From Marinoscillum furvescens DSM 4134 (GTDB lineage Bacteria; Bacteroidota; Bacteroidia; Cytophagales; Cyclobacteriaceae): a stretch of 64,000 bases of DNA. Positions 29,524 through 32,745 of the stretch are shown piece after piece. Under the pieces are notes generated by a model. It searched no databases. It was given only the letters and a program-made list of their open reading frames with translations, and was not told where the DNA came from. The position numbers and the translations under genes are program-made. The stretch is taken from positions 225,255 through 289,254 of the forward strand of contig NZ_QREG01000002.1 of NCBI RefSeq assembly GCF_003386095.1, given 5' to 3'. Positions within the stretch are counted from its first letter, which is position 1. Each line of letters begins with the position of its first letter.

Positions 29524-31074
29524 TTAAAAAGGCATAGCATCATCTCCACCTCCGCCGCCTTCATTTTTGTTGGCTTTGCTAGGAAGAGTGATGGTAAAGT
29601 CTGTATTGCCACCGCCACCAGTTTGAGGAAAGGTCTGTCCATAGTTATCGCCACCCATCGGCTGATCCAAATCTTCAAACTTGGTAAACTTACCGATAAA
29701 TTTCAACGGAACATCTTCCAGTTTACCATGACGGTTTTTAGCGATAATCACGATTCCAGTGCCCTGCATAGGCATTCCGTTTTCGTCTTGCGTAATACCG
29801 TAATATTCCGGACGGTAGAGGAACATTACCATATCGGCATCCTGCTCTATAGATCCTGATTCCCTCAAATCCGAAAGCTGAGGTCGCTTATCGCCTCCCC
29901 GTGTCTCTACCGCACGACTAAGCTGCGACAGGGCTATCACCGGCACATTCAGTTCTTTAGCGATCATTTTCAGGGATCGCGAAATCTGAGCAATTTCCTG
30001 CTCACGGTTGCCACCGTTGTTGGAGCTCTCGCCACTCATGAGCTGCAAGTAGTCAATCACAATAATGGAAACACCATGCTGTGCTACAAGTCTACGTGCC
30101 TTGGCCCTCAGTTCGAGGATACTCAAACCAGGTGTATCGTCTATAAATATGGGTGCTTCTGATAGCTTACTGGTTTTACTGATGAGCTGTTGCCATTCGT
30201 AAGCTTCCAGGTTCCCTTTTCGGAGCTTATCCGACTCCAGCTCAGCCTCACCAGACACCATCCTGTGTACCAGCTGTACAGAGGACATCTCCAGAGAGAA
30301 TATGGCCACCGGTATATTAAAATCTACTGCGGCATTTCGGAGGGCCGACACCACAAAAGCAGTCTTACCCATACCCGGACGTGCCGCTATGATAATCAAA
30401 TCCGAACGCTGCCATCCCGAAGTATTGCGATCCAGCGCTGTAAAACCACTCGGGATTCCCGTAAGTCCATCGCTTTGGTTTTTACGTTCTTCGATCTCCT
30501 GAATGGCCTGATGCATCAGCGCACTCATGTTGTCGAAGTTTTTGCGAATATGTGATTCAGACACATCAAACAACGACTGCTGTGCCTTGTCTAACAGATC
30601 GAAAACATCTGTAGTATCTTCATAGGCGTCATGCTGAATATCCGAAGAAATCTGAATCAGGTCACGCTTAATCGATTGCTCTGCAATGATCCGTGCGTGA
30701 TACTCGATATTGGCCGCTGAGTTTACTTTGGTAGTCAGCTCTGACACATAGTATGCCCCTCCTACCAACTCCAGGTGGCCATTTTTTCTTAGCTGATGCA
30801 CCACCGTCTTGATATCCACAGGCTCACTGTTGTTAAACAGCTTGACGATGGCTTCAAAAATCATCCGATGAGCATCCTTGTAAAAGCTCTGAGGCTTTAA
30901 AACCTCTATAACGTTGGTCAGCGCATCACGCTCCAGCATCAGTGCCCCCAGTACTGCCTCTTCCAGCTCTATTGCCTGTGGCGGTAGTTTTCCAAGCTGT
31001 CGGGAGATATCCGAAACCGGAGATCTGCGGGGCTTATTTGTTGCTTTTAGGGTTGATGTGTTGCTTCCTTCCAT
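29524..31074 (-). CDS. dnaB: Replicative DNA helicase DnaB
   Basis: This 516-residue ring helicase has an N-terminal domain (residues about 30-130, PPQAIELEEAVLGALML), a linker, and a RecA-like motor. The motor has Walker A ARPGMGKTA (231-239), Walker B IIVIDYLQLMSG, the ALSQLSRAVETRGGDKRPQLSDLRESGSIEQDAD block with the arginine-finger region, and FRPEYYG-like FLYRPEYYG. After the motor, a flexible Gly-rich tail ends in GGDDAMPF, closely resembling the acidic tip of single-stranded-DNA-binding protein. DnaB unwinds the fork and recruits primase. The upstream gap contains a row of DnaA-box-like 9-mers. Confidence 0.97.
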   Translation of the reverse strand: MEGSNTSTLKATNKPRRSPVSDISRQLGKLPPQAIELEEAVLGALMLERDALTNVIEVLKPQSFYKDAHRMIFEAIVKLFNNSEPVDIKTVVHQLRKNGHLELVGGAYYVSELTTKVNSAANIEYHARIIAEQSIKRDLIQISSDIQHDAYEDTTDVFDLLDKAQQSLFDVSESHIRKNFDNMSALMHQAIQEIEERKNQSDGLTGIPSGFTALDRNTSGWQRSDLIIIAARPGMGKTAFVVSALRNAAVDFNIPVAIFSLEMSSVQLVHRMVSGEAELESDKLRKGNLEAYEWQQLISKTSKLSEAPIFIDDTPGLSILELRAKARRLVAQHGVSIIVIDYLQLMSGESSNNGGNREQEIAQISRSLKMIAKELNVPVIALSQLSRAVETRGGDKRPQLSDLRESGSIEQDADMVMFLYRPEYYGITQDENGMPMQGTGIVIIAKNRHGKLEDVPLKFIGKFTKFEDLDQPMGGDNYGQTFPQTGGGGNTDFTITLPSKANKNEGGGGGDDAMPF

Positions 31075-31160
31075 TCAAATTTTTACTAAAAATCAAAGGC
31101 AAACCTACGAAGAGATGAGCTGAAGAAATTCGCTAAAGTCATATAAATTTTCACACTTTG

Positions 31161-31222
31161 TTATCCACAACGAAGCGCCTTATAAGTCAGTTCATTCACA
31201 AGTTATCGACATGTTATTCACA
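31161..31222 (+). promoter_or_regulatory. Cluster of four DnaA-box-like 9-mers upstream of dnaB
   Basis: TTATCCACA (31161-31169) and TTATTCACA (31214-31222) match the DnaA-box consensus TTATNCACA exactly. TCATTCACA (31192-31200) and TTATCGACA (31203-31211) each differ by one base. All are on the same strand, and the last three start exactly 11 bp apart with 2-bp gaps. AT-rich stretches flank the cluster on both sides. It may be an oriC-type DnaA array or a DnaA-controlled promoter region for dnaB and the divergent gene. Confidence 0.7.
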
Positions 31223-31232
31223 TTGAAAAAAA

Positions 31233-31263
31233 TTTGCCGCCGAGCCAATTTCCCTTATTTTTG
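31233..31263 (+). promoter_or_regulatory. Consensus Bacteroidota promoter
   Basis: TTTG at 31233-31236, a spacer of exactly 19 bases, and TATTTTTG at 31256-31263 reproduce the TTTG-N19-TAnnTTTG consensus. Transcription would begin near 31270, 15 bases before the ATG at 31285. This rules out the apparent earlier TTG start at 31234 and shows the DnaA-box cluster lies immediately upstream of this promoter. Confidence 0.75.
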
Positions 31264-31284: not shown

Positions 31285-31884
31285 ATGCAAATAAACACGG
31301 ACCTTATTAAGCATAAACAACGCATCTACATAGGAGGCACCAATGGTGTGGATGAAATTTTCGAACTGGTAAAGTTTGTACTCGATCACGTGAACAAACC
31401 TGCTGATTTTTTTACTGTAGGCGCAGACAACACACTCACTGATGCCCCGGTAGTATTTATAAAAGGCGGAGATGAGCTGGACGGAGATGATGCCATCTTT
31501 CATCAGCTGGACATCCACATACTTCTACTTCATAGAATTAAAGACAAACTACCCAAAGGATACGACACCATAGATGCCTATGTAGCTCAGTATGAAAAAC
31601 TGGCAGATAGTCTTCCTAAAGCGGGTACTTTTATTTTCAATGTGGATGACAACATGGCCACTCTCATCGGTAAAAAAGAACGTGAAGATGTGAAAAACAT
31701 TGAATATTCCGCTCTGCCATCCACAAAGACATCATCTGGATTTACCTTTAATATTGGGTCGGGTGCTGTGGCCGTATCTACAAGTGACGAAAAGTTCCCA
31801 AAATACCTGGCTGGTGTTCAGGCAGTACTTAAGCGCATAGGCATTAGCGATGCTCAAATACTTAGTGCACTGAAAGACTACTAA
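31285..31884 (+). CDS. Degenerate Mur-ligase central-domain protein (probable pseudoenzyme)
   Basis: This 199-residue protein starts MQINTDLIKHKQRIYIGGTNGVDEIFELVKFVLDH. The layout follows the ATP-binding domain of Mpl/MurC-type ligases: a strand and loop at the P-loop position, an aligned LDIHILLLHRI...DTIDAYVAQYEKLADSLPKAGTFIFNVDD segment resembling the 'DH-F.....Y...F..L...P.GG.LI.N..D' region, and little else. The P-loop reads GTNGVDE (18-24) instead of GT[HN]GK[ST], so ATP binding should be lost. The N-terminal UDP-substrate domain and most of the C-terminal domain are absent. The role is unknown; a regulatory or structural role in cell-wall synthesis is a guess. It has its own consensus promoter. 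Confidence 0.65.
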   Translation: MQINTDLIKHKQRIYIGGTNGVDEIFELVKFVLDHVNKPADFFTVGADNTLTDAPVVFIKGGDELDGDDAIFHQLDIHILLLHRIKDKLPKGYDTIDAYVAQYEKLADSLPKAGTFIFNVDDNMATLIGKKEREDVKNIEYSALPSTKTSSGFTFNIGSGAVAVSTSDEKFPKYLAGVQAVLKRIGISDAQILSALKDY

Positions 31885-31941: not shown

Positions 31942-32745
31942 ATGCAACTCAAACTAAAAAACCCACTCGTCGTATTTGATCTTGAAACTACAGGCACCAC
32001 CATCTCACAAGATCGCATCGTGGAGATGGCACTTATCAAAGTTATGCCTGATGGATCTGTGGAAGAAAAGTGCAGACGGATCAACCCCACCATACCCATC
32101 CCTACAGAAGTGAGCCTGATCCATGGTATCTACGACGAAGACGTAAAAGACGAACCTACTTTTAAGCAGGTAGCCAAATCACTAGCCACCTGGCTGGAAG
32201 GCTGCGACCTGGCCGGCTTCAACATCTTGAAGTTTGACGTGCCGATGCTCGTGGAAGAATTTTTACGTGCCAACGTGGAATTCGATGTAGACAACCGCAA
32301 ACTGGTAGATGCACAGAAGATTTTCCACCTGATGGAAAAACGCAACCTTACCGCGGCCTATAAATTTTACTGTGGCAAAGACCTGGAAGGTGCTCATAGT
32401 GCACTAGCAGACACTCAGGCTACTTACGAAGTTTTACTTTCGCAGATCGAAAAGTACAACGGAGAGAAGGTAGTGGACCTACTCGGTAAAGAACTTGGCG
32501 TCATTGAAAACGACGTAAACACCCTACATGCATTAACCAACAAGAAAATGGTGGATCTGGCTGGCAGAATTGTCTACAATGACAAAAACCAGGAGGTATT
32601 CAACTTTGGCAAACACCGAGGCAAGCCTGTAGCAGAGGTATTGCAACGTGAGCCGAGTTTTTACGACTGGATGATGAAAGGAGACTTTCCGCTAGACACA
32701 AAACGCAAACTGACTCAAATCAGGCTGCGCAATAGTTTTGGGTAA
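31942..32745 (+). CDS. DnaQ-like 3'-5' exonuclease
   Basis: This 267-residue protein has a DEDDh exonuclease domain at residues 1-175. Motif Exo I is VVFDLETTGT with Asp and Glu ligands, Exo II is AGFNILKFDVPML with the conserved Asn and Asp, and Exo III is GAHSALADTQAT with the His-x4-Asp pair. The C-terminal 70 residues contain FNFGKHRGKPVAEVLQREPSFYDWMMKGDFP, a DUF3820-like FGKYKG...YL.W module common after such exonucleases in Bacteroidota. It could be a proofreading epsilon-like or repair nuclease; no polymerase gene is nearby. It is 57 bases after the Mur-like gene on the same strand. Confidence 0.9.
   Translation: MQLKLKNPLVVFDLETTGTTISQDRIVEMALIKVMPDGSVEEKCRRINPTIPIPTEVSLIHGIYDEDVKDEPTFKQVAKSLATWLEGCDLAGFNILKFDVPMLVEEFLRANVEFDVDNRKLVDAQKIFHLMEKRNLTAAYKFYCGKDLEGAHSALADTQATYEVLLSQIEKYNGEKVVDLLGKELGVIENDVNTLHALTNKKMVDLAGRIVYNDKNQEVFNFGKHRGKPVAEVLQREPSFYDWMMKGDFPLDTKRKLTQIRLRNSFG

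What the first reader, a model, noticed from the sequence alone, without database searches (positions are those of the whole stretch)
31161..31222. Phased DnaA-box array next to dnaB
Two perfect (TTATCCACA, TTATTCACA) and two one-mismatch DnaA 9-mers lie within 62 bp in the same orientation. The last three start at 31192, 31203 and 31214, exactly 11 bp apart with 2-bp gaps, as in DnaA arrays of replication origins. AT-rich flanks are present. It could be oriC itself or a DnaA-regulated promoter coupling helicase supply to initiation.
Basis: partly seen in the sequence, partly recalled or inferred. Interest (0 to 1): 0.75.

Follow-up and report, generated by a model that had tools for sequence, protein, structure and literature searches.

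The report
Initiator-protein switch at helicase gene
Next to the gene for the DNA-unwinding helicase DnaB sits a cluster of docking sites for DnaA, the protein that starts chromosome copying; it is probably not the starting point of copying but a control switch tying helicase supply to DnaA, and similar sites often accompany this gene in the phylum Bacteroidota.

Summary
The array is real: four same-strand DnaA boxes (two perfect, two with one mismatch), the last three 11 bp apart. None of 5,000 shuffles of the intergenic region matched it. The genome's only double boxes (2-3 bp gap) with at most one mismatch lie here and at nrdB.

It is very unlikely to be oriC: skew shows no flip along the 396-kb contig, and another DnaA-box cluster, beside a TPR gene on another contig, is the better candidate. 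That cluster recurs in 28 of 30 loci and lies near a skew flip in a congener, 1.68 Mb from dnaB.

Best reading: a DnaA-binding regulatory site of the dnaB promoter. In named Bacteroidota loci DnaA boxes are about 3-4 times denser upstream of dnaB than of other genes. With unnamed relatives added, same-strand pairs peak at 11-12 bp, the spacing E. coli DnaA prefers.

Against: none of five congeners has this array (each keeps one perfect box), 15 of 80 named loci lack boxes, and nothing shows binding or regulation. DnaA sites at dnaB are known in Caulobacter and M. tuberculosis: a new member of a known kind.

The parts
31161..31169 (+). DnaA box 1, TTATCCACA (perfect)
31192..31200 (+). DnaA box 2, TCATTCACA (1 mismatch)
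31203..31211 (+). DnaA box 3, TTATCGACA (1 mismatch), 2 bp after box 2
31214..31222 (+). DnaA box 4, TTATTCACA (perfect), 2 bp after box 3; with box 3 the best 2-bp-gap double box found in the genome
29524..31074 (-). dnaB, replicative DNA helicase (516 aa); proposed target
31100..31107 (-). TAGGTTTG, match to the Bacteroidota -7 box TAnnTTTG, at -33 to -26 from the dnaB start codon; a TAnnTTTG match is aligned there in all six species of the genus examined
   Evidence: motif from PMC9723704 passages
31233..31236 (+). TTTG, putative -33 element of the divergent gene, 10 bp after the array (the -33 motif is recalled)
31256..31263 (+). TATTTTTG, putative -7 box of the divergent gene, 19 nt after TTTG; aligned in all six species
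31285..31884 (+). divergent gene, 199-aa protein with a sub-threshold similarity to the Mur ligase middle domain (20.4 bits, cut-off 24)

Best explanation
The array is a cis-regulatory DnaA-binding site of the dnaB promoter, not an origin. Shown: four phased same-strand DnaA boxes between two divergent promoter-like elements; enrichment of DnaA boxes and of 2-3-bp-gap double boxes upstream of dnaB in Bacteroidota. Inferred: DnaA binds the double boxes cooperatively, as E. coli DnaA does, and so adjusts dnaB transcription to the amount or nucleotide state of DnaA, and perhaps also the divergent gene. Direction: I lean to activation in this species (about 60:40), because the boxes lie upstream of the core promoter (centres about -70, -101, -112 and -123 from the inferred start site); in some relatives (for example L026, L027) the boxes overlap the inferred -33 region, where repression would be as likely.
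For: Array and null. The only double boxes with <=1 mismatch found in the 5.96-Mb genome are here and at nrdB, a gene that DnaA regulates in E. coli (PMC8203912 passages). 80 named Bacteroidota dnaB loci: of 77 with a full 350 nt upstream, mean 1.75 boxes (<=1 mismatch) against 0.61 for 339 other upstream regions, p = 7e-15, reversed motif p = 0.33; significant within Cytophagales, Sphingobacteriales, Flavobacteriales and the Chitinophaga/Saprospiraceae group. 41 unnamed relatives of family and order: mean 2.34 against 0.49 for 254 control regions from four of the relatives, p = 3e-16; double boxes 16 of 41 against 0 of 254. Named set: double boxes 7 of 80 against 1 of 286, p = 1e-4. Offset histogram of 122 regions peaks at 11 and 12 (16 and 10), the 2-3 bp gaps that E. 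coli DnaA prefers (PMC11317965 passages). Boxes persist where the mpl-like signature is absent beside dnaB: mean 1.67 in 67 of the 76 named loci tested, against 0.45 per control region. DnaA is present, with the stretch GGRDHSTVIHA.
Against: No binding or expression data. The phased array is not conserved in the genus: 0 of 5 congeners have a double box there, and the perfect box of each is on the other strand. Some loci have no box within 350 nt upstream of dnaB, among them four Dyadobacter, Hymenobacter terrenus, Spirosoma profusum and Aquirufa: 15 of 80 named and 5 of 43 others. Bacteroidales and the unassigned named group show no significant excess (p = 0.11 and 0.14). Counted over the whole genome, double boxes with up to two mismatches barely exceed the reversed pattern (6 and 6 against 4 and 4); the mismatch levels of the reversed matches were not shown. 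The array is nearer the divergent gene's putative promoter (10 bp) than the dnaB -7 box (53 bp), and by eye I see no clear -33 element for dnaB. Counts are not corrected for common descent.
Confidence: 0.75

Rival explanations
1. The array is the chromosomal origin oriC (or part of it).
For: DnaA boxes with 11-bp phasing, A+T-rich intergenic region, replication gene next door.
Against: GC skew negative in all 20 segments of the 396-kb contig, no flip. A different DnaA-box cluster beside a TPR gene occurs in 28 of 30 loci and lies about 3-4 kb from the skew flip of a congener, 1.68 Mb from its dnaB. In the eight relatives with both genes on one contig dnaB lies at least 1.4 Mb away.
Confidence: 0.03
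2. The array regulates the divergent Mur-ligase-like gene rather than dnaB.
For: It ends 10 bp before that gene's putative -33 element; box centres at about -50, -61, -72 and -103 from its inferred start site. Its promoter-like elements are aligned in six species.
Against: Boxes stay with dnaB when the mpl-like signature is absent beside it: 67 named loci, mean 1.67 boxes, against 0.45 per control region. mpl-like genes away from dnaB were not examined.
Confidence: 0.12
3. A DnaA-titrating or DnaA-nucleotide-switching locus (datA- or DARS-like) that happens to lie here.
For: Non-coding loci outside oriC do this in E. coli (PMC4585315, abstract seen in the listing).
Against: The boxes follow the dnaB gene in genomes where dnaB lies at different distances from the oriC candidate. 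IHF and Fis sites were not tested.
Confidence: 0.07
4. Chance cluster without function.
For: The precise array is absent from five congeners.
Against: 0 of 5,000 shuffles, genome-wide rank, enrichment in relatives.
Confidence: 0.03

Closest known systems
DnaA-regulated dnaB of Caulobacter crescentus (Hottes et al. 2005, as told in passages of review PMC8203912)
   Same: Predicted DnaA boxes upstream of dnaB; dnaB counted in the DnaA regulon there.
   Different: Other phylum; here a phased multi-box array and a broad comparative pattern, but no expression data.
DnaA binding upstream of dnaB in Mycobacterium tuberculosis (PMC7738170, passages)
   Same: DnaA-bound region at dnaB; a DnaA variant that binds it less also under-expresses dnaB.
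   Different: Shown biochemically there; only sequence here.
E. coli 'double DnaA box' (PMC11317965, passages)
   Same: Closely spaced box pairs with 2 or 3 bp between them; the purH pair joins an imperfect and a perfect box.
   Different: Targets named in the passages seen are purH, polA and mutH/DARS2; the passages do not name dnaB as a target. Here three boxes run in tandem.
E. coli nrdAB promoter (PMC8203912, passages)
   Same: Replication-related gene under several DnaA boxes; this genome has a comparable cluster at nrdB.
   Different: Different gene; in E. coli the effect is measured.

Membership tests
oriC | Cluster of DnaA boxes | tested here: met
   Four boxes in 62 bp; for comparison, 28 of 30 oriC candidates of the family hold 5-18 in 450 bp.
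oriC | Sits at the GC-skew flip | tested here: not met
   No flip across 396 kb. In relatives G005, G034 and G040 the samples on either side of dnaB have the same sign (weak in G034); G032 is inconclusive, with a near-zero sample.
oriC | DNA unwinding element and initiation activity | not testable with these tools
   Needs marker frequency or an oriC-plasmid assay.
DnaA-regulated promoter | DnaA boxes in the promoter region of a gene, more than chance | tested here: met
DnaA-regulated promoter | DnaA binding in vivo or in vitro | not testable with these tools
   No ChIP or footprint.
DnaA-regulated promoter | Expression responds to DnaA | not testable with these tools
   No expression data.
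DnaA-regulated promoter | The same array kept in congeners (supporting, not strictly defining) | tested here: not met
   0 of 5 have a double box at dnaB; 5 of 5 have one perfect box.
E. coli-type double DnaA box | Two boxes 2 or 3 bp apart | tested here: met
   Boxes 2-3 and 3-4, both 2 bp apart, same strand.
datA / DARS | Specific box arrangement with IHF or Fis sites (recalled) | not tested
   No IHF or Fis scan made.

The most novel reading that the evidence does not exclude
Across much of Bacteroidota the initiator DnaA controls supply of its own helicase through boxes at dnaB that are rebuilt by binding-site turnover in each lineage. With similar links reported in an alphaproteobacterium and an actinobacterium, a DnaA-to-dnaB wire could be an old or repeatedly evolved part of bacterial initiation control, perhaps above all in lineages that load helicase by DciA.
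Probability: 0.35. Interest if true: 0.6.

Novelty: new member of a known kind. Interest (0 to 1): 0.42.

Why it matters
Two DnaA reviews gave no hit for Bacteroid* in their main text (PMC8203912, PMC5835720), and none of the titles listed by my searches (some lists capped, open-access papers only) is on a DnaA regulon in this phylum. If DnaA sets dnaB expression here, helicase supply joins nucleotide supply (nrdB) as an output of the initiator, and one ChIP-seq experiment can test it. The comparison also yields a candidate oriC for the family, beside a TPR gene near an mnmG-like gene.

Tried and rejected
oriC at this place: rejected by skew. The box cluster near the ClC-channel gene (G000:C5:67835) as the origin: skew positive on both sides apart from one near-zero 5-kb block, so not favoured. 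Regulation of an mpl-like neighbour only: boxes persist without it. A first mpl signature was too strict and miscounted; it was widened, and the mpl counts are not used. One search's controls included the divergent neighbour of the same intergenic region; drop it (286 controls). The double-box test (25 of 122 against 1 of 286; reversed motif 0 of 122) mixes unnamed relatives with controls from named loci only; one search gives matched comparisons, and those are quoted. Skew sampling of G032 and G040 does not put their flip at the TPR gene, so skew supports the oriC candidate in G005 and G034 only; the rest is box clusters. The 350-nt control sets depend on mechanical ORF starts; the nrdB cluster and the oriC cluster of G005 do not show up in them, though see them. 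DnaA-ATP dependence, IHF/Fis sites and predicted structures were not pursued.

Full report
What is there. Between dnaB (29524-31074, minus) and a divergent short gene (31285-31884, plus) lie four DnaA boxes on the plus strand at 31161, 31192, 31203 and 31214. Steps are 31, 11 and 11 bp, so all four lie on about one face of the helix. TAGGTTTG (31107-31100, minus), at -33 to -26 from the dnaB start codon, fits the -7 box TAnnTTTG of flavobacteria (PMC9723704 passages); TTTG and TATTTTTG with 19 nt between them (31233, 31256) are the like for the divergent gene. These elements align in all six species of the genus examined. The genus is probably Marinoscillum: the dnaB contig of congener G001 has the length of a Marinoscillum pacificum record; that is an inference.

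Is it chance? Single boxes are not in excess in the window or the genome. But 0 of 5,000 dinucleotide shuffles of the 210-bp intergenic region gave four boxes, a 4-in-62 cluster or an 11-11 triple. In 912 kb of the genome (including a run reading N) only this place and the nrdB upstream region have four same-strand boxes in 62 bp; the reversed motif has none. Searching the whole genome for box pairs with 2- and 3-bp gaps gave 6 and 6 places at up to two mismatches, against 4 and 4 for the reversed pattern (whose mismatch levels are not shown); the only ones with one mismatch are at dnaB and at nrdB. So the excess in number is slight, and the case in this genome rests on rank, place and clustering. 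Of 176 upstream regions sampled in the genome, double boxes occur in three: two views of this intergenic region, and one between a thioredoxin-like gene (named by eye) and the end of a ClC gene.

Not an origin. Skew is negative in all 20 segments of the 396-kb contig. In congener G005 skew changes from negative to positive at about 2.911 Mb; about 3-4 kb on lies a cluster of near-boxes between a TPR gene and a Big_5 (Ig-like) gene, two genes from an mnmG-like gene (named by recall from its sequence). dnaB is 1.68 Mb away, between two negative samples. The TPR gene was found in 32 of 35 genomes searched, two of these only weakly; of the 30 loci kept, 28 have at least five boxes within 450 bp on one side (one of the two misses, L218, is cut by its contig end). 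In the window's genome that place, on contig C22, has 10 near-boxes and no perfect one, and skew along that contig is weak, without a clean flip. G034's skew changes sign between samples on either side of its TPR gene; in G032 and G040 the sampled flip does not coincide with it. Distances between dnaB and the candidate are at least 1.4 Mb in eight of eight relatives with both on one contig (G005, G014, G016, G017, G032, G034, G040, G045).

Relatives. 58 of 59 genomes (own included) have dnaB. I examined the upstream region in 43 of the 57 relatives with a match, one of them set aside as the same record as a named one, and in 80 named Bacteroidota loci (the best 80 of 590 confirmed). At least one box (<=1 mismatch) lies within 350 nt upstream in 65 of 80 named loci and in 38 of 43 others, the window included. 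Named loci with the full 350 nt: mean 1.75 (n = 77) against 0.61 (n = 339), p = 7e-15; reversed motif p = 0.33. By group: Cytophagales p = 4e-5, Sphingobacteriales 7e-8, Flavobacteriales 7e-8, Chitinophaga/Saprospiraceae 0.0015 (four loci), Bacteroidales 0.11, unassigned 0.14. In 122 regions (named and unnamed, one similar sequence removed), same-strand pairs peak at offsets 11 (16) and 12 (10), with smaller rises at 19-23 and 28-32 and few at 16-18 and 24-27; I did not test this periodicity formally. Boxes point against dnaB more often than with it (151 to 89; controls 65 to 65). These counts are not corrected for common descent.

Turnover. None of the five congeners has a double box at dnaB; each has one perfect box about 90-110 nt upstream, on the opposite strand to the window's boxes. 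What is kept is the presence of boxes, not the array. Some loci have none, for example four Dyadobacter.

How it probably works. DnaA is present (contig C8) with a stretch GGRDHSTVIHA that resembles the box-recognition helix of E. coli DnaA (comparison from memory), and a perfect box lies 72-80 nt before its own start codon. E. coli DnaA prefers pairs 2 or 3 bp apart and binds much less when a base pair is added to the 3-bp purH gap (PMC11317965 passages). I infer cooperative DnaA binding that raises or lowers dnaB transcription. In M. tuberculosis a DnaA variant that binds the dnaB promoter less under-expresses dnaB (PMC7738170 passages), which with the upstream position here tips me to activation. 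Overexpressed DnaB inhibits replication initiation in E. coli (PMC4828956 abstract), so control of its level is plausible. The genome has DciA; DnaC-type loaders were not searched.

Place among known things. DnaA sites at dnaB are reported for C. crescentus (PMC8203912 passages) and M. tuberculosis. This is the same kind of site in Bacteroidota; the new part is the breadth and the double-box spacing. None of the titles that my searches listed is about it in this phylum, but lists were capped and the library is open-access only.

Noticed in passing
L037 (G000:C1:470939-470979), also L038, L039, L041: DnaA-box cluster upstream of nrdB (ribonucleotide reductase small subunit) in the window's genome; the like in two congeners (L038, L039, nrdB judged from resemblance of the flanks) and in one genome of another family (L041).
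   Followed up: partly
L043 (G000:C5:67835-67941), also L044, L046, L047: DnaA boxes near the end of a ClC-channel/CBS gene: two direct boxes 20 bp apart and an inverted one 78 bp on, with identical spacing in L043, L044 and L046, and in L047 with one mismatch in the inverted box. No skew flip there in the window's genome.
   Followed up: partly
L211 (G000:C22 about 97.2-97.6 kb); L196:14479-14884: Candidate oriC of the family: box cluster between a TPR gene and a Big_5 gene, in G005 two genes from an mnmG-like gene.
   Followed up: partly
L110-L117: TTATTAACA occurs upstream of dnaB in 7 of these 8 Sphingobacteriales loci, perhaps a lineage-specific DnaA-box variant.
   Followed up: no
window 31942-32745; L025, L028: An exonuclease gene (RNase_T with ExoX-like C-terminus) lies one gene from dnaB here; by eye a similar gene is the direct divergent neighbour of dnaB in two relatives.
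   Followed up: no
window 31285-31884: A short protein with weak Mur-ligase-middle-domain similarity stands where 16 of 28 relatives tested show an mpl-like signature (the name mpl is recalled); possibly a reduced relative of it.
   Followed up: no
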